Shown here: in pieces, positions 15,419 through 55,787 of the stretch | How the letters are laid out: each line of letters begins with the position of its first letter | Position numbering within the stretch: position 1 is the first letter of the stretch | NCBI RefSeq assembly: GCF_013085465.1 | Contig: NZ_CP049838.1 | Span: forward strand, 496,001 to 560,000 | Origin: Streptomyces asoensis | GTDB lineage: Bacteria > Actinomycetota > Actinomycetes > Streptomycetales > Streptomycetaceae | Length of the DNA: 64,000 nucleotides | Reading direction: 5' to 3' | The notes under the pieces: model-generated | The model's database searches: none | What the model was told of the DNA's origin: nothing | The model's input: only the letters and a program-made list of their open reading frames with translations | Translations under genes and position numbers: made by a program

Positions 15419-16828
15419 TCACTCGTCGTTCACCCAGCGCATGAGCCGCTGGAGCGGGTAGAACCCGTCGTGGGAGAGACCCGGTGGCATGCCGCCCGCC
15501 CCGCCCAGGGACACCACGCGCTGGACGCCGGCGCAGGCGAGGGCGTCGCGCAGCTCCGCCTTGCGGGTGGGGGGATACACGCCGACCGTCTGGGTGGCGA
15601 CCCCGGCGTGTCCGACGGCTTCGGAAAGATCGGCGACCGGGACGACGTCGACGATCTTTCCGTCGGGGTGGAAGTCCACCGGTTCGGGCGAGCGGATGAC
15701 CAGTCCTCGGCCGTCGTAGCCGCCCCACACCCGGTACTCGGGCGCCAGGGAACGCAGTACGTCGATCTCCTCGCGGAGTCCCGCCGCCACCCGCGGGCCG
15801 TCGGCCGAACTGAACTCCCTTGCCACTCCCAGGCGTTCGCAGAGCAGGGCGGCATAGCGGTCGGCGTCGTCCCGGGAACCCTCGACGAACTGGAAGCGGC
15901 TGGCCACGCACGCCTGCTGGTTGAAGAACGTGGCGTCGGCGGCGCCCGCCTCGGCTGCTCGGGCCAGGGTCTCGGGGGACTCGAACGCCTCGCGGCCGAT
16001 CAGCGAGATGGATGTCTTGGGGTCGAAGGAGACCAGCTCGAATCCCGGGCCCACGTATCTCAGGGCGCCGCGGATGGTGGCCTCGCCGCCCCAGGCGACC
16101 AGCTTGTCGAAGAACTGCGGGCGGAACAGCACGCTCTCCACCGTCTCGTCGCCGCCGCGCCAGTACACCGCGGAGAACGAGCGCACCACAGGGTGACCGG
16201 GCGCCACCGCGGCCATCGTCCGCAGGATCGCGGTGGCGGTGAACAGGTCGTTCGACGGTAGCTTCAGGAGGTTGACGCCCTTGGTGAGGGCGCCGCGCAC
16301 GACGGACATCGCCGCGACTCCGGGCGCGTTGCCGGCGATGATGTGCACCAGGCGTGGCGGGAACGCGCGGACGGCGGCCGTCCGGTCATCGGGCAGTCCC
16401 ACCTCGCGCCAGCCGTCGAGCACGTCCGTCCCGCCGAGTTCGTGGTCGATCTGGGCATACAGGTTGGGTCGTCGGAAGCTGCGCCACAGCACGGCGTAGG
16501 CGCGCTCGAGCACCTGCGCCGGCAGCGGGCTGACGCGGACCATACGCTCCAGCGCCTCGGCGAGCAGGCCCGCGCGGTCCGCGCGGAGGGCCTCGCCGGT
16601 CTCCACCAACAGGTCGACGATCTCCGCGACGGGCACCTGGAAAGCGGGGCCGGGTTCGCTGCGGGGCCACACCAGACGGTCCAGGTCGAGGGCCGGTGCG
16701 GTGAAGGCCGCGCCCGGGCGGCCGTGGGTGGTCTGGGCGCCGTGGTCGACCTCGCCGCGGACGATGTGGACGACAGCCACCGAACCCGCCGCAGTGCCGG
16801 CCACGCCGTCGAGCGTCGTGTCGCTCAT
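15419..16828 (-). CDS. LuxC-like acyl-CoA/acyl-protein reductase
   Basis: A 469-residue member of the LuxC fatty-acid reductase family within the aldehyde dehydrogenase fold. The nucleophilic Cys is Cys307 in FFNQQACVAS, and the nucleotide-binding region lies around HIIAGNAPGVAAMSVV (residues 162-177). LuxC reduces an activated acyl group to the aldehyde with NADPH. It overlaps the LuxE-like gene by four bases (ATGA) and is the last gene of the operon with binding protein and LivF. No luciferase LuxAB pair is next to it, so the aldehyde probably feeds metabolism rather than light. The operon points to a substrate taken up by the ABC system. Confidence 0.9.
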   Translation of the reverse strand: MSDTTLDGVAGTAAGSVAVVHIVRGEVDHGAQTTHGRPGAAFTAPALDLDRLVWPRSEPGPAFQVPVAEIVDLLVETGEALRADRAGLLAEALERMVRVSPLPAQVLERAYAVLWRSFRRPNLYAQIDHELGGTDVLDGWREVGLPDDRTAAVRAFPPRLVHIIAGNAPGVAAMSVVRGALTKGVNLLKLPSNDLFTATAILRTMAAVAPGHPVVRSFSAVYWRGGDETVESVLFRPQFFDKLVAWGGEATIRGALRYVGPGFELVSFDPKTSISLIGREAFESPETLARAAEAGAADATFFNQQACVASRFQFVEGSRDDADRYAALLCERLGVAREFSSADGPRVAAGLREEIDVLRSLAPEYRVWGGYDGRGLVIRSPEPVDFHPDGKIVDVVPVADLSEAVGHAGVATQTVGVYPPTRKAELRDALACAGVQRVVSLGGAGGMPPGLSHDGFYPLQRLMRWVNDE

Positions 16829-18192
16829 CCGTGGATCATCCCCCGCACATAGGAGTCGAGAGTCGCGGCGCAGGTGATCTTGTCATCGCCGCCGAGGTCG
16901 CCGTAGCGCTGGATGTCCGGCAGGACGACCGGTCCCGCTCTGCCGCACTCGCACGGGGAGAAGTCCACCAGGACGCGGTCGCCGCTGATCAGCCCGCCCC
17001 AGCGGCCCTCCAGGGAGACGTCGAGGAAGGCGAACCGCCCTTCCACGACGCCGTGTTCGGCGTTCAGCAGTGTCTCGCCCGGCTCGTCGAGCACCAGGGG
17101 GATCACCCACGGCGGTATGTGGTACCTGCTCTTCTCACAGGCGAGGCAGGAGCCCTGGAGCTCCGTCATGCCGTAGCTGCGCACGCGCCGTACGCCGGCG
17201 TAGAAGGCGGCGAACTGCTGCTGGTAGTCGTCGGGCAGCGCGCGGCCCTTGTTGCCGCCGCCGCTGAGCACCAGCGTGTCCGGGTGGAGGCTCCCGTCGG
17301 GCACACCGCGGGCGCGCAGCGCCTGGATCAGCGAGAACTGCTGGTTGTTCATGCCGGCGATCAGCAGCGGCTCGTCGCGGTGCGCGGCGATGTCCTCGAC
17401 GATCCGGGCCAGGGCCGCGCCCAGTTCCCGCTCGCGGGTCTCGGACGCGGACTCGAAGGAGCTGATCTCCCGGGGGGTCGCGGTGCCCTCCGCCATCCGG
17501 CGGCGCAGCAGCGCGCTGCTCATCAGCTCGGACACCCGCATCGGGTCCTCGGTCAGCAGCCGGGTTTCCTCGGGCCGCGCGAAGACCTCGGCGTGCCACC
17601 GGAAGCCGTCGATGGAACGCATCGGGCCGCTCGCCGGTGCGAGCAGATAGCCGCGGCGGACGGGCTTCGGCGGGAGCGGGTCCGGCCAGCAGGTGAGCTG
17701 CTCCAGGATGTCGTGCAGGAAACTCAGGTCGCTCGCGTCGCAGTTGAGGAAGGAGACCTTCCCGGAGGTGCCGCTGGTGATGTACGGGCGGTGGCCGGCG
17801 GCGGTGACACGGTCCGTCCATTCGTCGATGTCGCGCACGCCGTCCACGTCCACGTCGTCAGGTTCGACCGCCGAGACGGTGGTGTACCAGCGCAGGAGCC
17901 GGTCCCATCGGCCGGCGGTGATGAGGGAGACGGGGTACGACTTGTAGCTGGTGTGCGAGAAGAGCAGCGGCACGAGGTCGTCGAGACTCGTGATCTCGCG
18001 GACGCCGGTCTCCTCCGCCCGGGTACGCAGCAGCGGGATCCGCTCGCGATGGGCGGTGAAGGTCTCCCGCGCGGCCTCCAGCCGCAACTCCTTCAGCTCA
18101 TCGGCGGGTTGGTCGAAGGGGTCGCCGGACAGTACGAGGGATCGGATCTGCTCGCGGGCGCTTGCCACGGCATTCACCTCAATCAGTTGCAT
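16825..18192 (-). CDS. LuxE-like acyl-protein synthetase / AMP-forming acid activator
   Basis: A 455-residue ANL-superfamily protein of the LuxE/PaaK type. The phosphate-binding loop is YITSGTSGKVSF (residues 137-148) and SYGMTELQGS is the later adenylate motif. A C-terminal cluster of cysteines (CLACEK, CECGRAG) may bind metal or carry the acyl group. It activates a carboxylic acid with ATP and hands it to LuxC. The ATG at 18192 overlaps the end of livF by 14 bases; a GTG at 18177 is an alternative. The start lies inside an AGTTGCATGAATTG box also found at another promoter in the window. Confidence 0.87.
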   Translation of the reverse strand: MQLIEVNAVASAREQIRSLVLSGDPFDQPADELKELRLEAARETFTAHRERIPLLRTRAEETGVREITSLDDLVPLLFSHTSYKSYPVSLITAGRWDRLLRWYTTVSAVEPDDVDVDGVRDIDEWTDRVTAAGHRPYITSGTSGKVSFLNCDASDLSFLHDILEQLTCWPDPLPPKPVRRGYLLAPASGPMRSIDGFRWHAEVFARPEETRLLTEDPMRVSELMSSALLRRRMAEGTATPREISSFESASETRERELGAALARIVEDIAAHRDEPLLIAGMNNQQFSLIQALRARGVPDGSLHPDTLVLSGGGNKGRALPDDYQQQFAAFYAGVRRVRSYGMTELQGSCLACEKSRYHIPPWVIPLVLDEPGETLLNAEHGVVEGRFAFLDVSLEGRWGGLISGDRVLVDFSPCECGRAGPVVLPDIQRYGDLGGDDKITCAATLDSYVRGMIHG

Positions 18193-18892
18193 GAATTGTC
18201 TTTTCCGCGAGGTACGACGACTCGATCGCGTCCAGGTCCGCGCGCAGTTCCGCCGGGGTGCCGGTCATGGTGACGCGGCCGCGGTGCAGGACATACACGC
18301 GGTCCGCGATGTCCAGCACCTTGCGCACGTGCTGTTCGACCAGCAGCGCTCCCATTCCGCGGTCCGCCGCCTCGCGTACGGCGCGCAGGAGCCGGTCGAC
18401 CACGAGCGGGGCCAGGCCCAGCGACAGTTCGTCCGCGAGGAGCATCCGGGGGGCACGGCACAACGCGCGGGCCAGCGACAGCATCTGCTGTTCGCCGCCC
18501 GACAGCATGCCCGCGCCGGTCCTCAGGCGCTTCGCGAGCTCGGGGAAGAGCTCCAGCGCCTGCTCCGTCGTCACCCGGCCGACCCGCAGGTTGTCCGCGG
18601 TGTCGAGCCGGGTGAAGACCGCCCGCTCACCGACGTACGCCAGGCCCTGCCGGGCGCGGCGGTGCAGCGGTGCGCGGCTGGGCTCGCCCAGCCAGTGTGC
18701 CTCGCCGTGCATCGGGAGCAGGCCGCCGGAGAGCGCCCGGAGGGTGGTGGTCTTGCCCGCGCCGTTGGGTCCGAGCAGGGCGACCACCTCACCGGGGCGG
18801 ACCTCGAGTTCGAGGTCGCGTACGACGGGTCGGCTGCCGTATCCGGCGGACAGGGCGCGGGCTTCGATCAGGGGCACATCGGTGTCGTGCAC
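18179..18892 (-). CDS. LivF-like ABC transporter ATP-binding protein
   Basis: A 237-residue ATPase of the branched-chain amino acid (HAAT) family. Walker A GPNGAGKTTT is near residue 42, the signature is MLSGGEQQML, Walker B is MLLADELSLGL, and the H-loop is LVEQHV. The GTG at 18892 was chosen for the GGAGAG site upstream; it lies 11 bases after the binding-protein stop. It pairs with the ATPase domain of the LivH-LivM-LivG fusion encoded divergently. Note that Walker B ends in ADE rather than LDE, which still keeps the catalytic Glu. Confidence 0.92.
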   Translation of the reverse strand: MHDTDVPLIEARALSAGYGSRPVVRDLELEVRPGEVVALLGPNGAGKTTTLRALSGGLLPMHGEAHWLGEPSRAPLHRRARQGLAYVGERAVFTRLDTADNLRVGRVTTEQALELFPELAKRLRTGAGMLSGGEQQMLSLARALCRAPRMLLADELSLGLAPLVVDRLLRAVREAADRGMGALLVEQHVRKVLDIADRVYVLHRGRVTMTGTPAELRADLDAIESSYLAEKTIHATD

Positions 18893-18903
18893 GGGCTCTC
18901 TCC

Positions 18904-20145
18904 TCAGCCGGACGACGCGGCCGTCAGCACCTTGCGGACGTCGACGAAGGTCGATCCGGCCTTGGCCCACTCGATCTTCCCGTCGTGGATGGTCAGTTCG
19001 GTGGCGGTGGTGTTGTGGATGCGGTTGAGACCCTTGATCGGCAGGGCCGTCGCCGCCTTCCAGGTCAGCGGCGGCGTCAGGCCTCCGGTGTCGATGCCCG
19101 ACGTGGTGTCCAGCTCCTGCACCAGCGCCTTCGCCGTGATCGTCGGCAGCCGCTTCACGGCCTCGGTGAAGACCTTGAAGGCCACCCAGGTGGTCCCGTT
19201 GGCGCCGTTGGTGGTGTCGATGTCCTTGTCGCCCTTGGTGGCTGCGAGGAAGTCCTTCCAGGCGGCGTCGGAGGTCGGCGGGTAGTAGCCGGTGATCGCG
19301 GAGCCCTCCAGGGGGCTGCCGCTCCCGCCGGTGCTCTCGGCCAGCTGCGGGGTGAGGTTGCCGACGACGCTGCCGAGTCTCGTCTTGGCGCCGGACTGCA
19401 CATAGGACTTCACGAACAGGTCCGAGTGGGTGCCCAGGATGACGCTCACGCAGTCGCTGCCCTTGGTCGCGGCGGCCACCTGCGGGGCGAGGTCGGTGGC
19501 GGTGACCGGCACCTTGAGGTCCTTGGGCGCCGATCCTCCGGCGGAGGTCACGCCGAGGGTGAGGAACTGCGAGACGATGGCGGCGGCCGCCAGGTCGTAC
19601 CGCACCCCGGAGATCTTCTCGCAGCCCTGCTCCACCAGCTGACGGCCGTGCGCCGCGAAGACCACCGGGGTACCGCCGTTGACCGGGAACGACAGCGGGT
19701 TGGAGAACTCCGCCGCCGAGACGCCGGTCCCGCCGAGGTACGGGATGCCGGCCTTCTCCAGGATGGGCATGTAGCGGTCACCCGCGAGGCTGTACGACCC
19801 CACCACCGCGACCACCTTCTCGGCGACCGCCTGCTGCGCGCACTTCTCGGCCTCGTCCGGGTCGTTCTTCTCGTTGCAGGTGAGCACCTTGAGCGGGGCG
19901 CCCTTGATGCCGCCGTTGGCGTTGATCCACTTCTCGTACGCCTGGGCGGTGAGCCGGACTCCGGGCTGGGCGCTGCCCTGGGTGTCCTCCGGCGTCCAGA
20001 CCATCACCTTGACGGGTGTGCCCTTGAGCGAGGAGGTCTCGGCCGAGCTGCCGGACGCCTCTCCCCCACAGCCGGCGGCGAGCAGGGCTCCGGTCACCGC
20101 GAGACAGCTCGCTGCGGCGGTTCTGCGTCGGCGTGAGTCGTTCAT
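18904..20145 (-). CDS. Branched-chain-amino-acid-type ABC transporter substrate-binding lipoprotein
   Basis: A 413-residue periplasmic-binding-type lipoprotein. The N-terminus has RRRR, a hydrophobic stretch and the lipobox LLAAGC with the lipidated Cys at residue 26, followed by a Ser/Gly linker. The mature protein has the type I binding fold of the LivJ family (VKVMVWTPEDTQGSAQPG, AEKVVAVVGSYS). It would capture a substrate outside the membrane for the Liv-type permease. Because it shares an operon with LivF, LuxE and LuxC in a fatty-acid island, the ligand is more likely a carboxylic acid than leucine. That is inference. Confidence 0.92.
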   Translation of the reverse strand: MNDSRRRRTAAASCLAVTGALLAAGCGGEASGSSAETSSLKGTPVKVMVWTPEDTQGSAQPGVRLTAQAYEKWINANGGIKGAPLKVLTCNEKNDPDEAEKCAQQAVAEKVVAVVGSYSLAGDRYMPILEKAGIPYLGGTGVSAAEFSNPLSFPVNGGTPVVFAAHGRQLVEQGCEKISGVRYDLAAAAIVSQFLTLGVTSAGGSAPKDLKVPVTATDLAPQVAAATKGSDCVSVILGTHSDLFVKSYVQSGAKTRLGSVVGNLTPQLAESTGGSGSPLEGSAITGYYPPTSDAAWKDFLAATKGDKDIDTTNGANGTTWVAFKVFTEAVKRLPTITAKALVQELDTTSGIDTGGLTPPLTWKAATALPIKGLNRIHNTTATELTIHDGKIEWAKAGSTFVDVRKVLTAASSG

Positions 20146-20219: not shown

Positions 20220-20243
20220 GCACAATTATTTAAATGAATGTGC
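20220..20243. promoter_or_regulatory. 24-bp near-palindrome in the divergent Liv promoter region
   Basis: Between the binding-protein gene and the permease-fusion gene lies an AT-rich, near-perfect palindrome with arms GCACA and TGTGC around an ATTTAAAT core; 20 of 24 bases match the reverse complement. It contains AAATGAAT, resembling the ATGAAT core of the other boxes in the island. Probably an operator controlling both Liv transcripts. Confidence 0.65.
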
Positions 20244-20274: not shown

Positions 20275-22971
20275 ATGGACGACATCCTGCGGTTCGCGCT
20301 GCTCGGCCTGGGGCTGGGCGCGCTCTACGCGCTCACCGCGCACGGCATCGTGCTGGTCTACCGGGGCTCCGGCGTCCTGAACTTCGCGCACGGCGCGATC
20401 GGGATGACCGGCGCCTACGTCCAGTGGGAGCTCGCCGGCCGGCAGGGCGTGCCGTACTGGCCGGCCACCGCGTGCGGCGTGCTCGCCTCCGCCACGCTGG
20501 GCGTGCTCACCCATCTGCTGGTGCTCCGTCCCCTGCGCAGGGCGTCCTCGCTGGCCCGGCTGGTCGGCACCCTGGCGGTGTTCATCGTGCTCACCGCGAT
20601 CGCCGTCAAGCGCTACGGCGACAGCCTTCAGCTGGTACCGGGCAAGCTGCCCACCCGGCTGCTGACCATCGGCGGCGCGACGGTGACCGAGGACCGCGTC
20701 TGGCTGCTCGGCATCGCGGTGGCCGTGACCGCGGCCCTGCATCTCCTCTACAAGCGCACCCTGTTCGGCCTCGGCACCTCCGCGGTCGCGGAGAACGAGG
20801 CCACCGCCGCCTCCCTCGGCTGGTCCCCGGATCTGATCGCCACCGGCAACTGGGCGCTGGGCTCGGCGCTCGCGGGACTGACGGGCATCCTGATCGTGCC
20901 GGTCATCGGTCTGTCGGTGACCGGGCTGACGACCCTCCTGCTGAGCGCCCTGGCCGCCGCCCTGGTCGGCAGGTTCTCGTCGTTCCCCGCCACCCTCGCG
21001 GGCGGTCTGGTCATCGGGGTCGTGCAGTCCGAGCTGACCCGCTTCGGCTCCGACGTCACCGGGCTCGCCTCGTCGGTACCGTTCCTGTTCATCGCCCTGG
21101 TCCTGATCGCGCGCGGCCGGGCGCTGCCGCTGCGCGGCACGTTCCTGGAGCGTCTGCCCGCCCTGGGCACCGGCCGGGTGCGCCCCGTGCCGCTGGCTCT
21201 CGCCGCCGTGGTCGCGCTGGTGCTGGTGAGCCTGTCGACACCGCTGTGGGCCGACGCGATCACCACCACCCTGACGCTGTCCCTGATCATCCTGTCGATC
21301 GTCGTGGTCACCGGGTACGCGGGCCAGGTCTCCCTCGCGGCCTACGCCCTCGCCGGGACCGGCGCCTTCATCGCCGGGCATGCGGCGGCCGACTGGGGAT
21401 GGCCGTTCGAACTCGCCCTGCTGGTCGGCGTGTTGGGCACGGTGCCGATCGGGCTGCTGTTCGCACTGCCGGCGGTCCGCACGCGCGGCGTCAACCTCGC
21501 CATCATCACGCTCGGGCTCGGCACCACGCTGGAGGCGATGGTCTTCCAGAACACCGACCTGTCGACGACCCCCGGCAGCGACGGCATCGCGGTGGGCAAG
21601 CAGACCCTGTTCGGCATCAGTATCTCCGGAGTCGACCATCCGCAGCGGTACGCCGCCGTGGTGCTCCTGCTGTTCGTCGCCACCGCGCTCGTGGTCGCCA
21701 ACGTGCGGCGCAGCCGGACCGGCCGCCGGCTCGTCGCCGTACGGGCGAACGAGCGGGCCGCCGCCGCGCTCGGCATCGACGTCCGCGCGGCCAAGCTCTA
21801 CGCCTTCGGCCTGTCCGCGGCCATCGCCGCGCTCGCCGGCGTACTCACCGGCTTCCGCTCGACCTCGGTGGTCTTCTCCGACTTCGCCAGCTTCGACTCC
21901 ATCACCGCGCTCGGGCTCGCGGTCATCGGCGGCGTCGGCTTCCTCGTGGGCCCGCTGTTCGCCGCGACCTTCGCGGCCGGTACGGTCGGGGCCCGGTTCG
22001 GCGACCTGGTGCTGCCCGGTCTGAGCGAGTGGATGCCGCTGATCGGCGGGATCATCCTGGTGCTGACCCTGGTGGGCAACCAGGACGGCATCGCCAAGGA
22101 ACTCGGCGGCCGGGCGGCGGGCGTCCGGCGCAGGCTGTCCCCGAGGCGGGCACCGATGGTCCGGCAGGAGGCGTCGGCCGCCGTCGCGGACGTGCCCCGC
22201 GCCGCGCCCCTCCCGCTCCAGGTACGTGACCTCACCGTCCGCTACGGCGGTGTCGTCGCCGTCGACGGGCTCTCGCTGGACGTGGAGCCGGGCCGGATCG
22301 TCGGGCTCATCGGCCCCAACGGCGCCGGCAAGACCTCCGCCATCGACGCCGTCACCGGCTTCACCCGGGCCGCGTCCGGCACCGTGCGCCTCGGCGACCG
22401 GGACGCGACCCGCCTCCCGGTGCACCGGCGGGCGGCGGCCGGGCTGAGCCGGTCCTTCCAGTCGCTGGAGCTGTTCGAGGACATGACCGTCCTGGACAAC
22501 CTGTACGCGGCCTGCGACCGGCCCGGCCGATGGGCGTACCTCACCGACCTGGTCCGGCCAGGCAGCCGCCCGCTCCCCTCCCATGTGCTCGTCGCGGTGC
22601 GGGAGTTCGGCCTCCAGGACAGTCTGGACCGGCCGGTGGGCGACCTGTCGTACGGCGAGCGGCGGCTGCTGGCCATCGCCCGCGCGGTGGCGGCCTCGCC
22701 GTCCGTGCTGCTCCTCGACGAACCGGCCGCGGGGCTGTCGGACGACGAGACGCGGGAACTGGCCCGGCTGGTGCGGCGGCTGGCCGAGGACTGGGGCATG
22801 GGAGTGCTGCTGGTCGAGCACGACGTCGACATGGTCATGAGCGTCTGCGACCAGGTCGTCGTCCTGGACTTCGGACGCCGGATCTGCGCCGGACCGCCGG
22901 AGGAGGTGCGCCGCGATCCGGCGGTCCGGGCCGCCTACCTGGGCGACCTGGAACCGGAGGCGCTGTCCTGA
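20275..22971 (+). CDS. Fused LivH-LivM-LivG ABC transporter (two permeases plus ATPase)
   Basis: One 898-residue polypeptide holds three subunits normally made separately. Residues about 1-290 are a LivH-type permease (LNFAHGAIGMTGAY), 300-620 a LivM-type permease (VSLAAYALAGTGAF, VRANERAAAALGI), and 645-898 a LivG-type ATPase with Walker A GPNGAGKTSA near residue 680, signature LSYGERRLL, Walker B LLLDEPAAGLS and H-loop VEHDV. The ATG at 20275 has GGGAGG upstream. With the divergent binding protein and LivF it makes a complete importer. Confidence 0.93.
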   Translation: MDDILRFALLGLGLGALYALTAHGIVLVYRGSGVLNFAHGAIGMTGAYVQWELAGRQGVPYWPATACGVLASATLGVLTHLLVLRPLRRASSLARLVGTLAVFIVLTAIAVKRYGDSLQLVPGKLPTRLLTIGGATVTEDRVWLLGIAVAVTAALHLLYKRTLFGLGTSAVAENEATAASLGWSPDLIATGNWALGSALAGLTGILIVPVIGLSVTGLTTLLLSALAAALVGRFSSFPATLAGGLVIGVVQSELTRFGSDVTGLASSVPFLFIALVLIARGRALPLRGTFLERLPALGTGRVRPVPLALAAVVALVLVSLSTPLWADAITTTLTLSLIILSIVVVTGYAGQVSLAAYALAGTGAFIAGHAAADWGWPFELALLVGVLGTVPIGLLFALPAVRTRGVNLAIITLGLGTTLEAMVFQNTDLSTTPGSDGIAVGKQTLFGISISGVDHPQRYAAVVLLLFVATALVVANVRRSRTGRRLVAVRANERAAAALGIDVRAAKLYAFGLSAAIAALAGVLTGFRSTSVVFSDFASFDSITALGLAVIGGVGFLVGPLFAATFAAGTVGARFGDLVLPGLSEWMPLIGGIILVLTLVGNQDGIAKELGGRAAGVRRRLSPRRAPMVRQEASAAVADVPRAAPLPLQVRDLTVRYGGVVAVDGLSLDVEPGRIVGLIGPNGAGKTSAIDAVTGFTRAASGTVRLGDRDATRLPVHRRAAAGLSRSFQSLELFEDMTVLDNLYAACDRPGRWAYLTDLVRPGSRPLPSHVLVAVREFGLQDSLDRPVGDLSYGERRLLAIARAVAASPSVLLLDEPAAGLSDDETRELARLVRRLAEDWGMGVLLVEHDVDMVMSVCDQVVVLDFGRRICAGPPEEVRRDPAVRAAYLGDLEPEALS

Positions 22972-22978
22972 CCGCGGT

Positions 22979-23773
22979 TCACGCGTCGCGGAGGTCCGCC
23001 ACATACGGCTGGTGGGACAGCAGTCCGCCGTCCACGCGCAGGGTGTGCCCGGTGATGAACGCCGACTCGTCGGAAGCGAGGAAGACGACCGCCGACGCGA
23101 CGTCCTCCGGGCGCCCCAGCCGCGGTGTGAGGTGATGACGCAGCATCGCCTCCCGGATCGCCCCGTGCGCCGAACCGGCGCTGGCCGGCGTGACGATGAA
23201 GCCCGGCGCGATGGCGTTGCACCGGATTCCCTGCTTGCCGTACTGGGTGGCGACGTACTGCGTGAGGTTGACGAGGGCGGCCTTCGAGGCGCCGTACGCG
23301 GGGTTGCGCAGGTCGCCCGCGAGGCCCGCCCCCGACGAGGTGTTGACGATCGAGCCGCCGCCCCGGGCGATCATGTGGGGGACGGCGGCCTGGATGGCGA
23401 CCATCGTCCCGCGGAGGTTGATCCGCATCGTGTCGTCCCAGACCCCCGGATCGGCCTCCACGACGGCGAGGTCCCGGCGAGCGGCCAGGTGCGTGGCCGC
23501 CGCGTTGTTGTGCAGGACGTCGAGGCCGCCGTACGTCTCGAACGCGGCGGCCACCATGGCCCGTACGCTCTCGACGTCACCGAGGTCGACGGGGACGGCC
23601 GTCGCGGTGCCCCCGGCGGCGCGGATGTCCTGCGTCACCGCCTCGGCGCCGTCGAGGTTCAGGTCGGCGACCACCGTGTGCGCGCCCTCGGCCGCCAGGC
23701 GACGCGCGGTGGCCGCGCCGATGCCGGACGCGGCCCCGGTGACCACGGCCACCTTGTCTTCGAGTCGTCCCAT
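22979..23773 (-). CDS. SDR family oxidoreductase
   Basis: A 264-residue classical SDR: TGAASGIG near residue 13, NNAAATHL near residue 90, catalytic Ser in NTSSGAGL, YGASK as Tyr-x-x-x-Lys, and a C-terminal VDGGLL. The ATG at 23773 places the cofactor motif at its usual distance. It is the last gene of the minus-strand operon with two thiolases, an HMG-CoA-synthase-like protein and another SDR, so it probably oxidises a 3-hydroxyacyl-CoA or ring hydroxyl. It converges on the Liv fusion gene with only seven bases between. Confidence 0.88.
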   Translation of the reverse strand: MGRLEDKVAVVTGAASGIGAATARRLAAEGAHTVVADLNLDGAEAVTQDIRAAGGTATAVPVDLGDVESVRAMVAAAFETYGGLDVLHNNAAATHLAARRDLAVVEADPGVWDDTMRINLRGTMVAIQAAVPHMIARGGGSIVNTSSGAGLAGDLRNPAYGASKAALVNLTQYVATQYGKQGIRCNAIAPGFIVTPASAGSAHGAIREAMLRHHLTPRLGRPEDVASAVVFLASDESAFITGHTLRVDGGLLSHQPYVADLRDA

Positions 23774-23789
23774 GGCCGAACCGCCTTTC

Positions 23790-24998
23790 TCAGTCGGTGA
23801 GTTCGCTGCCGACGACGGAGACGAACGAGACGCATTCACCGGGTCCGCCGCCGAGGTTGTGCGTCAGGGCGAGCGAACGCCCCTCGGCCACGGACCTGAC
23901 CGTCCGCTCGGGCGGTGCCTCGCCCCGCAGTTGCAGCCAGGCCTCGAACATCATGCGCAGTCCCGATGCGCCGATGGGGTGGCCGAAGGCCTTCAGGCCG
24001 CCGTCCGGGTTGACCGGCAGCGGGCCGTCCAGGTCGAAGACGCCGCTGGTGACGTCCTGCCAGGCCTGCCCGCGTTCGGAGAAGCCCAGGTCCTCCATGA
24101 GCACCAGCTCCGTGGGCGTGAAGCAGTCGTGGACCTCGGCGAGGGCGAGCTCGGCGCGTGGGTCGGTGATGCCCGCCTGCCGGTAGGCCTCCCGCGCGGA
24201 GGCGACGACCTCGGGGAAGGTGGTGAAGTCGTACGCCGGGTCGAGGAGCCCGTCCGCGGGGCCGGCGACGAAGGAGAGCGCCTTCACGTAGACCGGCCGG
24301 TCCGTGTACTTGTGGGCGTCCTCGGCCCGTACGACGATCGCCGCGGCCGAGCCGTCCGAGACGCCCGAGCAGTCGAACACGCCGAGCATGCCGGCGACGA
24401 TCGGGGCCGACCGGATGCGCTCCGGCGGGACCTCCTTGCGGAACTGGGCGCGGGGGTTGCGGGCCCCGTTGACATGGTTCTTCCAGGCGATGCGGGTGAT
24501 GACGTCCTTCAGCTCGTCCTGGGCCAGTCCGTACTTGGCGGCGTAGGCGGGGGCGAGGAGGGAGAAGTTCGCCGGCGCGGTGATCTCGCCGCGGCTGTCG
24601 TCGCCGGCACCCGGGATGACGGTGCCGGACAGCCCGGACATGCCGGAGTCCTTGAGTTTCTCCACGCCGACCGCCATGGCCATGTCGTACGCGCCGGACG
24701 CGACCGCGTAGCAGGCGTTGCGCAGGGCCTCGGAGCCGGTGGCGCACATGTTCTCCACGCGGGTGACCGGCTTGTGGGGCAGGTGGAGCGCCCGGCTCAG
24801 GGTCAGCCCGGACACGCCGGAGGCCTGGGTGCCGAACCAGTACGCGTCGATGTCGTCGAGCGTGATGCCGGCCGAGGTCACCGCCTCGCCCACGGCATCG
24901 ATCAGGAGGTCGTCCGCCGATCGGGTCCAGTGCTCGCCGAAGGGCGTGCAGCCCATGCCGACGATCGCGACCCGGTCCCGGATTCCGTGTGAGCTCAT
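23790..24998 (-). CDS. SCP-x/lipid-transfer-type thiolase (acetyl-CoA acetyltransferase)
   Basis: A 402-residue thiolase-fold protein of the SCP-2/SCP-x group. The nucleophilic Cys85 lies in VENMCATGSEA, the His motif is AFGHPIGASG, and the C-terminal glycine loop is LGGGPGECV. It would cleave a beta-ketoacyl-CoA with CoA. Its ATG overlaps the stop of the HMG-CoA-synthase-like/DUF35 gene by four bases, so the two probably form a complex, as thiolases and DUF35 proteins do in archaea and in steroid degradation (established for those families). Unlike the Ltp2-like protein at 51472, it keeps the catalytic Cys. Confidence 0.88.
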   Translation of the reverse strand: MSSHGIRDRVAIVGMGCTPFGEHWTRSADDLLIDAVGEAVTSAGITLDDIDAYWFGTQASGVSGLTLSRALHLPHKPVTRVENMCATGSEALRNACYAVASGAYDMAMAVGVEKLKDSGMSGLSGTVIPGAGDDSRGEITAPANFSLLAPAYAAKYGLAQDELKDVITRIAWKNHVNGARNPRAQFRKEVPPERIRSAPIVAGMLGVFDCSGVSDGSAAAIVVRAEDAHKYTDRPVYVKALSFVAGPADGLLDPAYDFTTFPEVVASAREAYRQAGITDPRAELALAEVHDCFTPTELVLMEDLGFSERGQAWQDVTSGVFDLDGPLPVNPDGGLKAFGHPIGASGLRMMFEAWLQLRGEAPPERTVRSVAEGRSLALTHNLGGGPGECVSFVSVVGSELTD

Positions 24999-26434
24999 CC
25001 GCGTGCCTCCCCAGTCCCGCCCGCGCGCACCGGCCGGGCCTTCCAGAAGTAGTTGTGGACGCCGGCGGCGGTGACGGTACGCCGGAACGTCATCTCCACC
25101 CGGGCGCCGATGACGGCGTCGGCCTCGGTGGCGTCGGTGAGCTGGCAGCGGAACCGGCCGCCGTCGTCGTAGTCGACGACCACGACGAGCATCGGCGGAC
25201 TCGGGGTGTGGGCCAGCCGGTCGACGGTGAACGTGGCGACCGTGCCGCGCACCTGCTCCATCGGCTCGGCGGTCATGGCGTCGACACTCCGGCAGGAGGT
25301 GCACACCCGGTCCGGCGGCAGATGCCGGGCACCGCACTTCTCGCAGCGGGAGGCGACGAAACCGTACTTCCAGCCGGAGCGGCGGTGCGCGGGCGGCGCG
25401 CAGGGGGGTTCGGGGTCCGGCCGGCGGGGTGGTTCGCGGTCGAGGAGGCCGCGCCAGGAGAGGTAGGTGGCGTACGGCATGGGGGCGCCGCCCGCGGCGA
25501 TCTGGGCGGCGACGGGGCGGGCGCCGCGATGGGCGGGCAGCGCGTCGGTGGTGCGCAGCAGCAGGACTCCGGCGCCGTCGCCGAGCACCACGAGCGCGAT
25601 GGTCTCGCCGGGCCGGGCCCGGTCGAGGACGTCGGCGAGGAGCAGACCGGGCTGGGCGGTGCCGGCGTTGCCGATCGTCCCGGTGAGGTCCGGGGTCACC
25701 GCCTCGGGCGCCACGCCCGCCGTGCGCCGTACCGACGCGCACGCGCGCGCATGCAGGCCGGAGACGACGAAGTGGTCGATCGCCTCCCGTTCCAGACCCG
25801 CCTGCTCGAGGGCGCCGCTCAGCGCCTTGTCCGCGAGGGACACGTAGATCTCCTCGGCGAAGCGTTCCTCCCAGACCCGGGAGGCGGGCGCGCCCGGCAG
25901 CCGCCAGCGGTCGAGGATCTCGTCGCTGACCGTGTCGTGGGCGAGCAACTCCGCCAGGACGGGGGCGCCGTTGCGGTGTCCGCCGAAGACGAACGCCGCG
26001 GCGCCGTCGCCGCCGGCGACCTCGTCGCCGCCGCCCGGCAGACCGGTGCGCAGATCGGACAGGACCGTCAGGGTCGCCACCGGGGAACGGGCCGCCGTCA
26101 CCAGGGCGGCGAGGCCGGAGCGGACCGAACCCGCCATGTCGGCGGCGAGCACGTGCTCGTCCAGGCCGAGCGCGGCGTGCACGGCGGTCGCGTTCGTCTT
26201 GTCCAGGTAGGCGGGGGCGGCGGTGGCGAGGAAGAGCTGGCCGATGCGGGGGCGCAGTCCGTCGCGGGCGAGGGCGCCGCGGGCCGCCTCGACGGCCATG
26301 GACGTGGTGTCCTCGTCGTAGCCCGCGACCGCGCGGGTCCCCTTGCCCGCCCCCGTGCCCAGGACGGCGGCTACATCCGTCCGCGCGAGACGGTGGTACG
26401 GCACGTAGGCGCCGTATGCGATCAGTCCGGCCAT
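24995..26434 (-). CDS. HMG-CoA-synthase-like domain fused to DUF35 (rubredoxin-like Zn ribbon plus OB fold)
   Basis: A 479-residue two-domain protein. Residues 1-310 have the ketosynthase/HMG-CoA-synthase fold (GAYVPYHRL, LGDGAGVLLL). Residues about 355-479 are a DUF35 module with a zinc ribbon (Cys364, Cys367, Cys378, Cys381) and an acyl-CoA-binding OB fold. The region where these enzymes normally carry the catalytic Cys reads AADMAGSVRSG (98-107) with no Cys, so the first domain may be non-catalytic or use other chemistry. ATG at 26434 has GGAGG upstream. It sits between two thiolase genes, overlapping one. Confidence 0.82.
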   Translation of the reverse strand: MAGLIAYGAYVPYHRLARTDVAAVLGTGAGKGTRAVAGYDEDTTSMAVEAARGALARDGLRPRIGQLFLATAAPAYLDKTNATAVHAALGLDEHVLAADMAGSVRSGLAALVTAARSPVATLTVLSDLRTGLPGGGDEVAGGDGAAAFVFGGHRNGAPVLAELLAHDTVSDEILDRWRLPGAPASRVWEERFAEEIYVSLADKALSGALEQAGLEREAIDHFVVSGLHARACASVRRTAGVAPEAVTPDLTGTIGNAGTAQPGLLLADVLDRARPGETIALVVLGDGAGVLLLRTTDALPAHRGARPVAAQIAAGGAPMPYATYLSWRGLLDREPPRRPDPEPPCAPPAHRRSGWKYGFVASRCEKCGARHLPPDRVCTSCRSVDAMTAEPMEQVRGTVATFTVDRLAHTPSPPMLVVVVDYDDGGRFRCQLTDATEADAVIGARVEMTFRRTVTAAGVHNYFWKARPVRAGGTGEARG

Positions 26435-26435
26435 G

Positions 26436-27686
26436 TCAGCGTCCTCCATGAGCGTTGGTTGCGTCCGTCGGCCGCGCGAAGACCGCGGCCAGGCCCTGGC
26501 CACCGCCGAGACACATGGTCTCCAGGCCGTATCGGGCCTGGCGGCGGTCGAGTTCGCGCAGCAGGGTGGCGAGGATGCGGCCGCCGGTGGCGCCGACGGG
26601 GTGGCCCAGCGAGATGCCGGAGCCGTTGACGTTGAACCGCTGGAAGTCGGTCTCGGTCAGGCCCCATGCGCGGGTGCAGGCCAGTACCTGGGCGGCGAAG
26701 GCCTCGTTGAGTTCGATCAGGTCGATGTCGGCGAGTTTCAGTCCGGCCCGTTCCAGGGCCCTGGCGGTGGCGGGCACCGGCCCGATGCCCATCGTCTGCG
26801 GCGGTACGCCGACGACGGCCCAGGAGACCAGACGGCCCAGCGGGCGCAGGCCGAGTTCGGAGGCCCGCTCGGGGTGGGTCACGACGCAGAGCGCGGCTCC
26901 GTCGTTCTGCCCGCTGGCGTTGCCGGCCGTGACGGTCGCCTCCGGGTCCTGGCGGCCGAGGACGGGCCGGAGCCCCGCGAGTTTCTCCAACGAGGAGTCG
27001 GGGCGCGGGTGCTCATCGGTGTCGACGACCGTCTCGCCCTTCCGCGTGCGTACCGTGACGGGCACGATCTCGTCGGCGAACCGGCCCTTCCGCTGGGCCG
27101 CGACGGCCTTCTCGTGTGAGCGCAGGGCGAGTCGGTCCTGCTCCTCGCGGGGGATGGCGTACGCACGGCGGAGGTTCTCGGCGGTCTCCAGCATGCCGCC
27201 CGGAACGGGGTGGTTGACGCCCCCGGAGGTGACCCGGCCGCGGGCCAGCCGGTCGTGCAGCGTGGTGCCCGCGCCGCGCACGCCCCAGCGGAGGTCGGTG
27301 CTGTAGAACTCGGCCCGGCTCATGGACTCGACGCCCCCGGCCAGGACGAGATCGCTCGCGCCGGTCTGCACCTGCATCGCCGCGGTGATGATCGCCTGGA
27401 GTCCGGAGCCGCACCGGCGGTCGATCTGGAGGCCCGGCACCTCCACCGGGAGGCCCGCGTCCAGGGCGGCCACGCGGCCGATGGCGGGAGCCTCGCCGTT
27501 GGGGTAGCACTGGCCCAGCAGGACGTCGTCCACGGCGGCGGGCGGTATGCCGGTGCGCTCCAGCACGGCCCGTACGACCGTGGCCGCGAGCTCGGCCGCG
27601 GTCACGTCGCGGAAGACGCCGCCGTAGCCGCCGACGGGGGTGCGCACGGGTTCGCAGATCACCGCGTCACGCAGGAGAGCGGGCAT
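26436..27686 (-). CDS. Acetyl-CoA C-acyltransferase (FadA-type thiolase)
   Basis: A 416-residue classical thiolase with all three active-site motifs: nucleophile Cys92 in DRRCGSGLQ, the His in GHPVGATGGR, and the second Cys in MCLGGGQG. It performs thiolytic cleavage of beta-ketoacyl-CoA, the last step of a beta-oxidation cycle. The ATG at 27686 follows GAAAGG. It lies 22 bases after the SDR at 27709, a likely 3-hydroxyacyl-CoA dehydrogenase, so the pair supplies the last two steps of the cycle. Confidence 0.93.
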   Translation of the reverse strand: MPALLRDAVICEPVRTPVGGYGGVFRDVTAAELAATVVRAVLERTGIPPAAVDDVLLGQCYPNGEAPAIGRVAALDAGLPVEVPGLQIDRRCGSGLQAIITAAMQVQTGASDLVLAGGVESMSRAEFYSTDLRWGVRGAGTTLHDRLARGRVTSGGVNHPVPGGMLETAENLRRAYAIPREEQDRLALRSHEKAVAAQRKGRFADEIVPVTVRTRKGETVVDTDEHPRPDSSLEKLAGLRPVLGRQDPEATVTAGNASGQNDGAALCVVTHPERASELGLRPLGRLVSWAVVGVPPQTMGIGPVPATARALERAGLKLADIDLIELNEAFAAQVLACTRAWGLTETDFQRFNVNGSGISLGHPVGATGGRILATLLRELDRRQARYGLETMCLGGGQGLAAVFARPTDATNAHGGR

Positions 27687-27708: not shown

Positions 27709-28455
27709 TCACATGTACCGGCCGCCGGTCACCTCGACCACGGCTCCGGTGACGTAACTCGCCAGGTCGGAGGCGAGGAAGAGGACGACCTGGGCGACCT
27801 CGGCGGGTTCGCCCGCGCGGCCCAGGGGGATCTCGGCGAGCTTGGCGTCCCAGGCGGCCTCGGGCATCGCCTCGGTCATGGCGGTGCGGATCAGACCGGG
27901 CTGCACGGCGTTGACGCGGATGCCCGCCTTCGCGAGCTCCTTGGCGGAGGCCTTGGTGAGGCCGACGAGTCCGGCCTTGGCCGCGCTGTAGTTCGTCTGG
28001 CCGAAGTTGCCCACCTTGCCGGCGATGGAGGAGATGTTGACGATGCTGCCGCCCCGGCCGTGCGCGCGCATGGCCTCGGCGGCGTACCGGGTGCCGTTCC
28101 AGGCGCCGGTCAGGTGCACGTCGACAACGGCGCGGAAGTCGGCCAGGGCCATCTTGCGCAGGGTCGCGTCCCGGGTGATCCCGGCGTTGTTCACCATGAC
28201 GTCGACCGGTCCGAAGGTGTCGGTGCAGTGGGCGACCAGGGCGGCGACCTCGTCCTCGTCGGTGACGTCGCAGCGCAGCGAGGTGGCGGCCACACCGCGC
28301 TCGGCCAGGCGTTCGGCGGCCCGCGCGGCGGCCTCTTCGTGGATGTCACCGAGGACGACGGCCGCGCCCTCGGCGCCGAGGACCGCGGCGATCTCCAGGC
28401 CGATGCCCTGTGCGCCGCCGGTGATCACCGCGTTCCGGCCGTCCAGCAGTCCCAT
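27709..28455 (-). CDS. FabG-like SDR, probable 3-hydroxyacyl-CoA dehydrogenase
   Basis: A 248-residue SDR of FabG/PhaB character: TGGAQGIG near residue 12, NNAGITRD near 88, [21 protein letters not shown] containing the Ser and the Tyr-x-x-x-Lys (quoted in part: [12 protein letters not shown]), and VTGGRYM at the end. It is the first gene of the five-gene minus-strand operon ending at 22979. Its promoter region, shared with the divergent acyl-CoA dehydrogenase, holds an AAATAG-CTATTA box. The substrate is inferred from context. Confidence 0.9.
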
Positions 28456-28489: not shown

Positions 28490-28506
28490 AAATAGATAAC
28501 CTATTA
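28490..28506. promoter_or_regulatory. AT-rich inverted-repeat box, copy 1 of the TAAATAGMTAACCTATT element
   Basis: AAATAG-ATAAC-CTATTA lies between the divergent SDR (28455) and acyl-CoA dehydrogenase (28569) genes. It matches 15 of 17 bases of AAATAG-CTAAC-CTATTT at 55764-55780. The arms form an inverted repeat with a five-base centre. It is probably an operator acting on both divergent transcripts. Confidence 0.7.
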
Positions 28507-28568
28507 TGCTGAAACAATCAATACAGCGATGAGCTGTGCCAGCGGGGCCGGACGAGGAGACAGACCAG

Positions 28569-31232: not shown

Positions 31233-31283
31233 CGAGGTCACTCCCACGGGCCCGTCGGCCTTGCGGCCGGCTCAGCTTATAGC

Positions 31284-31298
31284 TAGATGAATCATCTA
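31284..31298. promoter_or_regulatory. Perfect palindrome TAGATGA-A-TCATCTA, FadR-type operator candidate
   Basis: A 15-base palindrome with perfect 7-bp arms, preceded by TTATAGC, lies 52 bases upstream of the crotonase start on the minus strand. A related site occurs in opposite orientation at 31392-31415 before the GntR gene. The size and symmetry suit a GntR/FadR dimer. Confidence 0.72.
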
Positions 31299-32232: not shown

Positions 32233-32286
32233 GCCCCGGCGACAAGCCGCCCTCACTCACCCCCGGCGACCCCTTGCGCTCTATAA

Positions 32287-32319
32287 ACAGTTAGATAATT
32301 ATAGAAGGCGTACTGAATA
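32287..32319 (+). promoter_or_regulatory. Conserved bipartite promoter element, copy 1
   Basis: ACAGTTAGATAATTATAG (32287-32304) is followed after seven bases by ACTGAATA (32312-32319), 26 bases before the amidohydrolase start. Both parts and the spacing recur exactly at 43452-43484. Such identity in a GC-rich genome implies a common protein binding site or promoter. Confidence 0.75.
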
Positions 32320-38466: not shown

Positions 38467-38560
38467 TTTATATAGTTACATGAATTGGATAGTTGAGCAA
38501 TCACAGGGGGACACAGGCAGCAGCCTAGTTGTATTATTTATATAACTGATTAGCTCGTCG
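38467..38560. promoter_or_regulatory. AT-rich divergent regulatory region with two box elements
   Basis: AGTTACATGAATTG (38474-38487) matches 13 of 14 bases at the luxE-like start (18185-18198). Further right, TTATATAACTG (38538-38548) is the reverse complement of CAGTTATATAA, one mismatch from CAGTTAGATAA of the bipartite element at 32288 and 43453. One box lies near each transcript: thioesterase operon on the minus strand, CoA transferase on the plus strand. Confidence 0.65.
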
Positions 38561-43399: not shown

Positions 43400-43451
43400 C
43401 CCGTCCTCGGTGCGGGCGGGCCTGCCACCCGCTTGCCGCCCACCGCTCGAT

Positions 43452-43484
43452 ACAGTTAGATAATTATAGTATCCGCACTGAATA
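43452..43484 (+). promoter_or_regulatory. Conserved bipartite promoter element, copy 2
   Basis: ACAGTTAGATAATTATAG (43452-43469), seven bases, then ACTGAATA (43477-43484), 15 bases before the crotonase start. It is identical in both parts and spacing to 32287-32319. TTGCCG at 43433-43438 is spaced 17 bases from TTAGAT inside the element, a possible promoter. It also lies upstream of the divergent dehydrogenase operon at 43399. Confidence 0.75.
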
Positions 43485-47256: not shown

Positions 47257-47285
47257 CTTAATTAGTTATAGCATTCAACTCTACT
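47257..47285. promoter_or_regulatory. AT-rich divergent promoter region between two crotonase genes
   Basis: TTAATTAGTTATAGCATTCAAC lies here in full (47259-47280, quoted in part: TTAGTTATAGCATTCAAC). It combines TTATAGC, also found at the GntR-flanking operator, with GCATTCAACT, also found at 46273. It probably controls both the minus-strand crotonase (47217) and the plus-strand operon (47302). Confidence 0.6.
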
Positions 47286-55728: not shown

Positions 55729-55763
55729 GGATGCCTCCTCGGAGCCGCACACAGGTTGAGTCT

Positions 55764-55780: not shown

Positions 55781-55787
55781 ATCCAAG

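What the first reader, a model, noticed from the sequence alone, without database searches (positions are those of the whole stretch)
15419..20145. Binding protein, LivF, LuxE and LuxC in one operon: uptake coupled to acid reduction
The order lipoprotein binding protein, LivF, LuxE-like, LuxC-like, with overlaps of 4 and 14 bases between the last genes, joins an importer to an acid-to-aldehyde reductase pair. LuxC and LuxE are known from bioluminescence, where they make the luciferase aldehyde; here no luxAB is present. A transporter-linked acid reductase in a non-luminous actinomycete, beside an acyl-CoA island, may be an undescribed route for handling an imported carboxylic acid.
Basis: partly seen in the sequence, partly recalled or inferred. 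Interest (0 to 1): 0.8.

Follow-up and report, generated by a model that had tools for sequence, protein, structure and literature searches.

The report
Importer-linked two-part acid reductase operon
A few percent of Streptomyces species carry a conserved stretch of catabolic genes in which the uptake system for an unknown acid shares an operon with a two-protein enzyme, related to the one that makes aldehyde for bacterial light, that probably turns the imported acid into an aldehyde without making any light.

Summary
On the minus strand lie a lipoprotein binding protein, LivF, a LuxE-like and a LuxC-like gene; a divergent fused LivH-LivM-LivG gene completes the importer. The order is kept in 21 of 24 Streptomyces loci and in 13 of 13 other LuxE-bearing genomes of a genus survey; the two sets overlap. 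LuxE occurs in 14 of 295 genomes, all with the binding-protein orthologue.

The LuxE-like protein folds like the adenylating domain of PaaK-type ligases, lacks their C-terminal domain and has an invariant tail cysteine. LuxC keeps its catalytic cysteine. A LuxE relative accompanies LuxC in 76 of 80 loci from several phyla, but binding protein and LivF stand beside them only in Streptomyces.

New here: an 18-bp AT-rich operator-like site recurs in nine intergenic regions of the island, including this operon's, and upstream of luxE in three loci where luxE does not follow livF directly.

Best reading: import of a carboxylate, ATP-dependent activation on LuxE, reduction to an aldehyde by LuxC. 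Substrate, direction and activity are untested.

The parts
15419..16828 (-). LuxC-like acyl/thioester reductase, 469 aa; catalytic Cys307 in NQQAC
   Evidence: PF05893 5e-49; PDB 7xc6_A E 2.6e-33, Cys aligned with the QQAC of 7xc6_A
16825..18192 (-). LuxE-like adenylating protein, 455 aa (probable start 18168, 447 aa); no ANL C-terminal domain; invariant tail Cys441
   Evidence: fold search and VIA alignment; C441 invariant in 46 of 46; Pfam LuxE only E 0.097
18179..18889 (-). LivF-type ATPase (longest ORF 18970-18179; start placed by homology at GTG 18889)
   Evidence: ABC_tran 6e-26; UrtE/LivF-type in NCBIfam, below cut-offs
18904..20145 (-). lipoprotein substrate-binding protein of an HAAT (Liv-type) importer, 413 aa
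   Evidence: Peripla_BP_6 7e-32; lipobox in the translation
20222..20241 (.). AT-rich operator-like site between the binding-protein and LivHMG genes
   Evidence: 22.5 bits with a matrix built only from other operons of the island; a site >=17 bits just upstream of the binding protein in 21 of 21 Streptomyces loci that hold it; aligned and conserved in 14 genomes; not matched by the 14-base core pattern
20275..22971 (+). LivH-LivM-LivG fusion, 898 aa, divergent from the LuxEC operon
   Evidence: BPD_transp_2 twice, ABC_tran, BCA_ABC_TP_C
22979..23839 (-). SDR oxidoreductase (SDR3)
   Evidence: NCBIfam SDR models; syntenic in 13 of 13 genomes
23836..25002 (-). thiolase of the lipid-transfer/PhlC-like type
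   Evidence: Thiolase_C_1, Thiolase_N in the longer ORF 23790-25742; no NCBIfam model at 1e-15 and no solved relative at 1e-5
24995..26503 (-). HMG-CoA-synthase/PhlA-like ketosynthase fused to a DUF35-type OB/zinc-ribbon domain
   Evidence: PDB 6esq_I 2e-20, PhlA 5m3k_A 2e-17, DUF35 chain 6esq_E 1.1e-5
26436..27686 (-). acetyl-CoA acyltransferase (thiolase)
   Evidence: NF004853 711 bits, cut-off 551
27709..28455 (-). SDR oxidoreductase, FabG-like (SDR1)
   Evidence: NF004198 356.5 bits, cut-off 296
28536..29816 (+). acyl-CoA dehydrogenase, PimC-like
   Evidence: TIGR03204 223 bits, below cut-off 624
28490..28507 (.). operator-like site between SDR1 and the acyl-CoA dehydrogenase
   Evidence: training site of the matrix
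31277..31294 (.). operator-like site between an enoyl-CoA hydratase and a GntR/FCD regulator (a second one at 31397, not used for training)
31429..32232 (+). GntR/FCD regulator 1
   Evidence: GntR, FCD
32285..32302 (.). operator-like site before the amidohydrolase gene
   Evidence: training site; matched
38470..38551 (.). two operator-like sites between the 4HBT and CoA-transferase genes (38470 training, 38534 not)
43450..43467 (.). operator-like site between an acyl-CoA dehydrogenase and an enoyl-CoA hydratase
   Evidence: training site; matched
47260..47277 (.). operator-like site between two enoyl-CoA hydratase genes
   Evidence: 19.9 bits with the seven-site matrix, not used for its training
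49233..50273 (+). F420-dependent luciferase-family oxidoreductase (not LuxAB)
   Evidence: TIGR03617 498 bits, cut-off 278
50277..51329 (-). GntR/FCD regulator 2, with an 81%-identical relative near LuxEC in Actinomadura; candidate regulator of the operator
54238..55752 (-). aldehyde dehydrogenase
   Evidence: Aldedh 7e-149; phenylacetaldehyde-dehydrogenase-like, below cut-off
55764..55781 (.). operator-like site, near-perfect palindrome, before the aldehyde dehydrogenase gene
   Evidence: training site
56976..56993 (.). operator-like site between an acyl-CoA dehydrogenase and an SDR
   Evidence: training site

Best explanation
The operon couples uptake of a carboxylic acid to its reduction. 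Steps: (1) the lipoprotein binds a carboxylate outside the cell, and LivHMG (fused) plus LivF import it with ATP (inferred from family). (2) The LuxE-like protein, an adenylation domain without the CoA-handling C-terminal domain, makes the acyl-adenylate and passes the acyl group to its own tail cysteine, Cys441 (inferred from fold and conservation). (3) LuxC takes the acyl group on Cys307 and reduces it with NAD(P)H to an aldehyde (inferred). (4) SDR and acyl-CoA enzymes of the same island use the product (inferred). The operon is regulated together with the acyl-CoA island through a shared AT-rich operator, probably bound by an FCD-type GntR protein (inferred). Shown: gene content, conserved order, conserved active-site cysteines, fold match, presence/absence linkage, shared operator-like sites.
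For: Order kept in 21 of 24 Streptomyces loci and 13 of 13 genomes of a partly overlapping survey. LuxE in 14 of 295 genomes; the binding-protein orthologue (85% or more) in those 14 plus one, no other listed match above 45%. A LuxE relative lies beside LuxC on the same strand in 76 of 80 loci. LuxC catalytic Cys aligned with the solved LuxC; the LuxC model's top PDB hit is 7xc6_A, E 1e-22. LuxE model (pLDDT 88.9) matches PaaK-type ligases and EhpF, and PaaK1 only up to residue 331 of a 425-residue chain. C441 invariant in 46 of 46 and in all 11 rows of a wider set, 7 of them new. Operator matrix trained without this operon scores its promoter 22.5 bits; the best position outside the island is 12.7. 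Where luxE does not follow livF directly: L018 25.2 bits at -50 (0 of 2000 permuted matrices reach it), L024 24.9 at -107 (49 of 2000; here luxE stands behind a promoter of the binding-protein type), Actinomadura 19.2 at -83 (49 of 2000). Parallel: an Azospirillum plasmid has annotated acyl-CoA ligase-acyl-CoA reductase-ABC ATPase-permease-binding protein-reductase genes in a row.
Against: No activity, ligand or expression data. Pfam does not recognise LuxE, and a profile of the family finds no solved LuxE at E 0.01. LuxC scores 154 bits against the luminous LuxC equivalog cut-off of 750. The LuxC model is weak (pLDDT 67.8). An aldehyde dehydrogenase behind the same kind of site would work the other way. 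G264 keeps importer and island genes without LuxE/LuxC. Actinomadura has LuxEC without a binding-protein match at E 1e-30. Operator: sites were first picked by eye with this promoter in view; permuted matrices reach its score in 11 of 1000 trials, and the same control gives 1 of 1000 for the site at 18181, which I reject as unconserved, so the control is not strict; a Pseudomonas luxE (L073) has a 20.3-bit site, above the Actinomadura one; the 14-base core pattern does not match this promoter even with two mismatches.
Confidence: 0.55

Rival explanations
1. The pair runs the other way or stops at the thioester: LuxC oxidises an aldehyde made by the island (for example by retro-aldol cleavage) to an acyl-enzyme, and LuxE or CoA takes the acyl group on, so the pair is an aldehyde-disposal or acyl-transfer device rather than an acid reductase.
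For: The LuxC model also matches aldehyde dehydrogenases. The island is catabolic in make-up: several acyl-CoA dehydrogenases, hydratases, thiolases, a CoA ligase and a CoA-transferase. It also holds an aldehyde dehydrogenase.
Against: An adenylating LuxE partner accompanies LuxC in 76 of 80 loci, which an oxidising enzyme would not need. The LuxE protein lacks the C-terminal domain that CoA ligases use. The described LuxC-LuxE reaction is reductive (recalled).
Confidence: 0.2
2. The island is biosynthetic: the thiolase/PhlA-like/DUF35 set builds an acyl or acyl-aryl product and LuxE-LuxC releases it as an aldehyde signal or metabolite; the importer takes up a precursor or the signal.
For: The ketosynthase-OB fusion matches PhlA and PhlB. 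LuxE-LuxC of another subfamily sits beside a polyketide synthase in Pseudonocardia.
Against: No polyketide synthase, peptide synthetase or carrier protein was among the island proteins scanned, which were many but not all of its ORFs. Neighbours of the pair elsewhere are often SDR, MFS and TauD proteins and regulators. Most island proteins scanned look like acyl-CoA breakdown enzymes.
Confidence: 0.15
3. Importer and LuxEC merely share a promoter by history and work in unrelated pathways.
For: Each is found without the other: G264 importer only; Actinomadura LuxEC only; in the genome of L024 the two lie on different contigs.
Against: Joint presence in 14 of the 15 genomes that have either orthologue, among 295. 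In S. himalayensis (L018), S. scabichelini (L024) and Actinomadura (L027) luxE has an operator-like site upstream although it does not follow livF directly.
Confidence: 0.07

Closest known systems
LuxC-LuxE of the luminous bacterial fatty acid reductase (PDB 7xc6)
   Same: LuxC domain along most of its length with the catalytic Cys; adenylating partner with a Cys close to its C-terminus; genes adjacent
   Different: LuxC 30% identical over 74% of its length to the reductase of a laboratory plasmid that I take to carry luxCDE; LuxE not recognised by Pfam; no LuxD-like gene among the four of the operon; no luxAB among the window proteins scanned; apart in the tree on long branches
EhpF-EhpG of D-alanylgriseoluteic acid biosynthesis
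   Different: Biosynthetic phenazine operon; EhpF is shorter; whether EhpG is a LuxC-family protein was not tested here
PaaK-type aryl-CoA ligases (PaaK1) and 2-hydroxyisobutyryl-CoA ligase
   Different: C-terminal CoA-handling domain missing; LuxC partner instead of CoA release
Carboxylic acid reductase (CAR)
   Same: Expected overall reaction: acid + ATP + NADPH to aldehyde
   Different: CAR is one chain with adenylation, carrier and reductase domains (recalled); here two proteins and no carrier domain
Azospirillum lipoferum plasmid cluster: CoA ligase-acyl-CoA reductase-ABC importer-reductase
   Same: LuxC-family reductase behind an adenylating-enzyme gene, next to ABC importer genes and a 3-oxoacyl-ACP reductase
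   Different: The first gene is annotated long-chain fatty acid-CoA ligase (350 aa) and gave no match to the LuxE family here; LuxC 28% identical over 74%; other gene order
Mycobacterium marinum mel2 locus
   Same: Lux-like genes in an actinobacterium, including a LuxC-like MelK (PMC1793995, passages read)
   Different: No clear LuxE according to its authors; has a luciferase-like member; proposed role in defence against reactive oxygen and nitrogen species

Membership tests
LuxC acyl-CoA/acyl-protein reductase family (PF05893) | domain score over the curated cut-off | tested here: met
   167.7 bits, cut-off 21
LuxC acyl-CoA/acyl-protein reductase family (PF05893) | catalytic cysteine in the QxAC motif | tested here: met
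   C307 invariant in 16 of 16, aligned to 7xc6_A; a motif search found it in 66 of 68 diverse rows
Luminous LuxC (NCBIfam equivalog NF052251) | score over the equivalog cut-off | tested here: not met
   154.3 bits, cut-off 750
LuxE acyl-protein synthetase (PF04443) | domain score over the curated cut-off | tested here: not met
   12.0 bits, cut-off 24.9, E 0.097
LuxE acyl-protein synthetase (PF04443) | acyl-accepting cysteine near the C-terminus | tested here: inconclusive
   C441 invariant in 46 of 46, in a KxCA context like the KGCALS of the presumed luminous LuxE on a laboratory plasmid, matched by eye; acylation cannot be tested here
LuxE acyl-protein synthetase (PF04443) | fold match to the solved LuxE (7xc6_E) | tested here: inconclusive
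   not among the rows shown; sequence match E 0.0039 only; none at E 0.01 with the family profile
LuxE acyl-protein synthetase (PF04443) | gene next to luxC | tested here: met
   same strand and within about 1.4 kb in 76 of 80 loci
PaaK-type CoA ligase | adenylation-domain fold | tested here: met
PaaK-type CoA ligase | C-terminal domain for CoA thioester formation | tested here: not met
   the match ends at PaaK1 residue 331 of a 425-residue chain and at model residue 434 of 455, leaving 21 residues
HAAT (branched-chain amino acid type) ABC importer | lipoprotein binding protein, two permease domains, two ATPases | tested here: met
Bacterial bioluminescence (lux) operon | luxAB luciferase genes | tested here: not met
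   the one luciferase-family protein among the window proteins scanned is an F420-type oxidoreductase, TIGR03617; not every window ORF was scanned and luxAB was not sought in the rest of the genome
Two-component carboxylate reductase (functional) | ATP- and NAD(P)H-dependent aldehyde formation | not testable with these tools
   needs purified proteins

The most novel reading that the evidence does not exclude
A dedicated uptake-and-reduce module: a plant- or soil-derived carboxylic acid whose carboxyl group cannot be removed by ordinary beta-oxidation is imported, reduced to the aldehyde by a carrier-free two-protein reductase, and only then fed into a roughly 60-kb regulated acyl-CoA island. 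The LuxE-LuxC pair would then be a general catabolic device of soil bacteria, of which light production uses one specialised branch.
Probability: 0.2. Interest if true: 0.72.

Novelty: new variant of a known kind. Interest (0 to 1): 0.52.

Why it matters
LuxC and LuxE are known mainly from light production (recalled). Here a distant pair is wired into the uptake operon, and by its operator-like site into the regulon, of a catabolic island, and similar pairs occur in several phyla in genera not known to glow. If the chemistry holds, reduction of acids to aldehydes by a small two-protein system would be a common but unlisted step in bacterial catabolism. It would also give a split, carrier-free alternative to carboxylic acid reductases for making aldehydes. 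The shared operator and the binding protein give direct handles for finding the substrate.

Tried and rejected
(1) An operator of its own at luxE in the window (18181, 19.3 bits; 1 of 1000 permuted matrices): rejected. In the other Streptomyces loci with the order, leaving out L018 (which has a separate site at -50), the best score near luxE is at most 15.1 and otherwise under 10, so it is a chance match; it also shows that the permutation control is not strict. (2) A real luciferase in the island: rejected. The luciferase-family gene at 49233-50273 is an F420-type oxidoreductase. (3) Naming the substrate from the binding protein: failed. PDB matches are weak (best 3lop_A, 8e-7) and no plasmid record holds a relative at E 1e-40. 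(4) Literature: ten searches listed no paper on a LuxE-LuxC pair in a Streptomyces catabolic cluster, as far as titles and abstract starts show; only open-licence papers are searched. (5) Fold search for the solved LuxE: 7xc6_E does not appear in the listed rows; this excludes nothing. (6) Site 'i' as first aligned by hand failed a leave-one-out test (-3.1 bits) and was dropped from the matrix. (7) Co-occurrence of the LivHMG, ketosynthase and luciferase-family genes across the genus could not be counted: no answer.

Rows dropped: for the LuxC tree, 29 near-identical or truncated loci of the 90 in hand were left out by hand; the neighbour census used 109 of the 119 proteins selected, from 30 of 56 non-Streptomyces loci, with genes called by a crude composition rule that also lets in false ORFs. 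An earlier count said about 28 Streptomyces loci; the recount is 21 of 24.
Full report
Observation. The binding protein has a lipobox and a Peripla_BP_6 domain; LivF is an ABC ATPase; the last gene is a clear LuxC (PF05893, 167.7 bits). The third gene reaches Pfam LuxE only at E 0.097, so 'LuxE-like' rests on other evidence. The LuxE/LuxC overlap of 4 bases is sound. The 14-base LivF/LuxE overlap depends on an upstream start; the 98%-identical homologue is 447 aa and most close ones listed are 445-450 aa (P0007 is 455), which suggests GTG 18168 and no overlap. The window is 496001-560000 of a 10.04-Mb single-contig genome, in which this is the only match along the whole LuxC model; six others are partial.

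Conservation. A scan of public genomes with a LuxC alignment kept 80 loci; 24 are from Streptomyces. Binding protein, LivF, LuxE and LuxC stand in this order in 21 of the 24. In 3 of the 21 (L009, L011, L018) more than 600 bases separate LuxE from LuxC. The three exceptions are L024 (LuxEC without the binding protein) and L035 and L050 (only a partial LuxC found). None of the 56 other loci shows a match to the binding protein in the fetched stretch; one, L039 (Nocardioides), has relatives of LivHMG and LivF about 8 kb from LuxE. A genus survey found LuxE in 14 of 295 genomes, own genome included. In the 13 others the block acyl-CoA dehydrogenase, SDR, thiolase, ketosynthase-OB fusion, thiolase, SDR, LivHMG, binding protein, LivF, LuxE, LuxC is syntenic in 13 of 13, at 83-96% protein identity. 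In the 8 of the 13 that I followed 40 kb further, the order continues: in 6 as far as the gene at 57.0-57.8 kb of the window, while in G140 and G292 the fetched stretch ended earlier because of insertions. The binding-protein orthologue (85% or more) occurs in those 14 genomes and in G264; no other listed match exceeds 45% identity, and these belong to a different copy widespread in the genus (231 of 295 genomes have some match at E 1e-60). G264 has importer and thiolase genes but no LuxE or LuxC at E 1e-20. So the linkage is strong but not absolute.

Elsewhere. A LuxE relative lies beside LuxC on the same strand in 76 of 80 loci, with gaps up to about 1.4 kb; of the four without one, L072 begins at a contig end, L040 is a 3.5-kb contig, and L035 and L050 hold partial LuxC matches. 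The LuxC tree puts the window's clade among proteobacterial and actinobacterial relatives, with the presumed luminous LuxC outside on a long branch (the tool warns about long branches). Of 109 proteins within two predicted genes of LuxEC in 30 non-Streptomyces loci, 19 are SDRs, 9 MFS transporters, 7 TauD dioxygenases, 6 AraC-type regulators and 3 luciferase-family proteins. Annotated plasmid records show ligase-LuxC-SDR in Pantoea, a cluster with oxidases and a P450 in Novosphingobium, and, most telling, an annotated acyl-CoA ligase, LuxC-family reductase, ABC ATPase, permease, binding protein and 3-oxoacyl-ACP reductase in a row in Azospirillum, a second and distant link between such a reductase and an importer. 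The Azospirillum ligase gave no match to the LuxE family here, so calling it LuxE rests on its place.

Regulon. Intergenic stretches of the island share an 18-bp AT-rich near-palindrome (best TAAATAG-CTAAC-CTATTTA, before the aldehyde dehydrogenase). I picked the sites by eye from a list that included this operon's promoter, but built the matrix from seven sites of other operons. It finds five more positions of 19 bits or more in the 64-kb window: 38534, 20222 (between binding protein and LivHMG), 31397, 47260 and 18181. The next, outside the island, is 12.7. Without 18181 the sites lie in nine intergenic regions, all within the island. Matrices with permuted columns reach the observed score in the binding-protein promoter in 11 of 1000 trials. 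All 21 Streptomyces loci with the binding protein have a site of 17 bits or more just upstream of it; these are orthologous, not independent. The site at 18181 passed the same control (1 of 1000) but is not conserved and is discarded, so the control alone is not strict. Three loci in which luxE does not follow livF directly are informative. In L018, where about 0.7 kb separate them, a further site of 25.2 bits lies 50 bases before luxE (0 of 2000 permutations). In L024 luxE stands directly behind a promoter of the binding-protein type, with a 24.9-bit site, the only one of 17 bits or more in the 21-kb locus (49 of 2000); this is the same promoter moved, not an independent site, and the binding-protein orthologue of that genome is on another contig. 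In Actinomadura a 19.2-bit site lies 83 bases before luxE (49 of 2000); it is weaker, that locus has stronger sites elsewhere, and a Pseudomonas luxE (L073) scores 20.3, so it could be chance. Genome-wide, a 14-base core made from island sites matches, with up to one mismatch, three times in 10.04 Mb, all three at training sites of the island, against 0 for the reversed control. With two mismatches 10 of 14 matches lie in 527.2-571.9 kb, against 11 control matches genome-wide, so the looser pattern is informative only by position. Neither search matches this operon's own site, which fits the core less well. Two of the ten matches lie beyond the window, one of them before another acyl-CoA dehydrogenase, so the island probably runs to about 572 kb. 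Actinomadura shares an SDR (66%), thiolase (74%), a GntR/FCD regulator (81%) and a luciferase-family F420 oxidoreductase (63%) around LuxEC, with a site close to the regulator's start. This makes the relative at 50277-51329 my first guess for the regulator, although in the window it is the other GntR gene (31429) that has sites in its own promoter.

Mechanism. I take the operon as import of a carboxylate, adenylation and self-acylation of LuxE, and reduction by LuxC to an aldehyde, which the SDR and acyl-CoA enzymes then use. The first and last steps are family inference; the middle steps rest on fold and conserved cysteines; nothing is assayed. The substrate is open. Hints are a family-1 glycosidase and a beta-lactamase-family protein, possibly an esterase, in the island, pimeloyl-CoA-dehydrogenase-like and IpdE2-like enzymes, all below equivalog cut-offs, and the aromatic-acid-activating relatives of LuxE. 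They point to plant-derived ring compounds but do not prove it. Why a catabolic route should spend ATP and NADPH on a reduction is not explained; one idea is a carboxyl group that beta-oxidation cannot reach.

Novelty. A new variant of a known kind: LuxE-LuxC-type acid reduction, here tied by operon and probably by operator to an HAAT importer in a conserved Streptomyces island. Ten paper searches listed no description of it, within an open-licence library only.

Noticed in passing
window 24995-26503: HMG-CoA-synthase/PhlA-like ketosynthase fused to a DUF35-type OB domain, next to a PhlC-like thiolase: the three parts of PhlACB-type complexes (composition recalled) in two genes.
   Followed up: partly
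window 20275-22971: LivH, LivM and LivG fused in one 898-aa protein.
   Followed up: partly
window 49233-51329 and L148, L147: F420 luciferase-family oxidoreductase and GntR/FCD regulator, with relatives (63% and 81%) near LuxEC in Actinomadura.
   Followed up: partly
L150 (G000:C1:558001-578000): The island goes on beyond the window to about 572 kb, with two more operator-like matches, acyl-CoA dehydrogenases, a thiolase, an SDR and another luciferase-family gene, then a LexA gene.
   Followed up: partly
L128 4589-10430: Azospirillum lipoferum plasmid: annotated acyl-CoA ligase and acyl-CoA reductase followed by ABC ATPase, permease, binding protein and 3-oxoacyl-ACP reductase.
   Followed up: no
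L122 and L075-L087: Sphingomonads and some others carry a second, distant LuxE-LuxC subfamily (about 36% LuxC identity), several on plasmids of Sphingobium strains.
   Followed up: no
L126 5367-11337: Mycobacterium avium plasmid: luciferase-family F420 oxidoreductase, LuxE-like, LuxC, phosphotransferase, SDR in a row.
   Followed up: no
window 11638-15403: Two neighbouring, overlapping ORFs with DUF4140/DUF4139 domains just outside the LuxC end of the operon.
   Followed up: no
L119, G264: A Streptomyces genome with the importer and thiolase genes but neither LuxE nor LuxC: a natural control for the role of the pair.
   Followed up: partly
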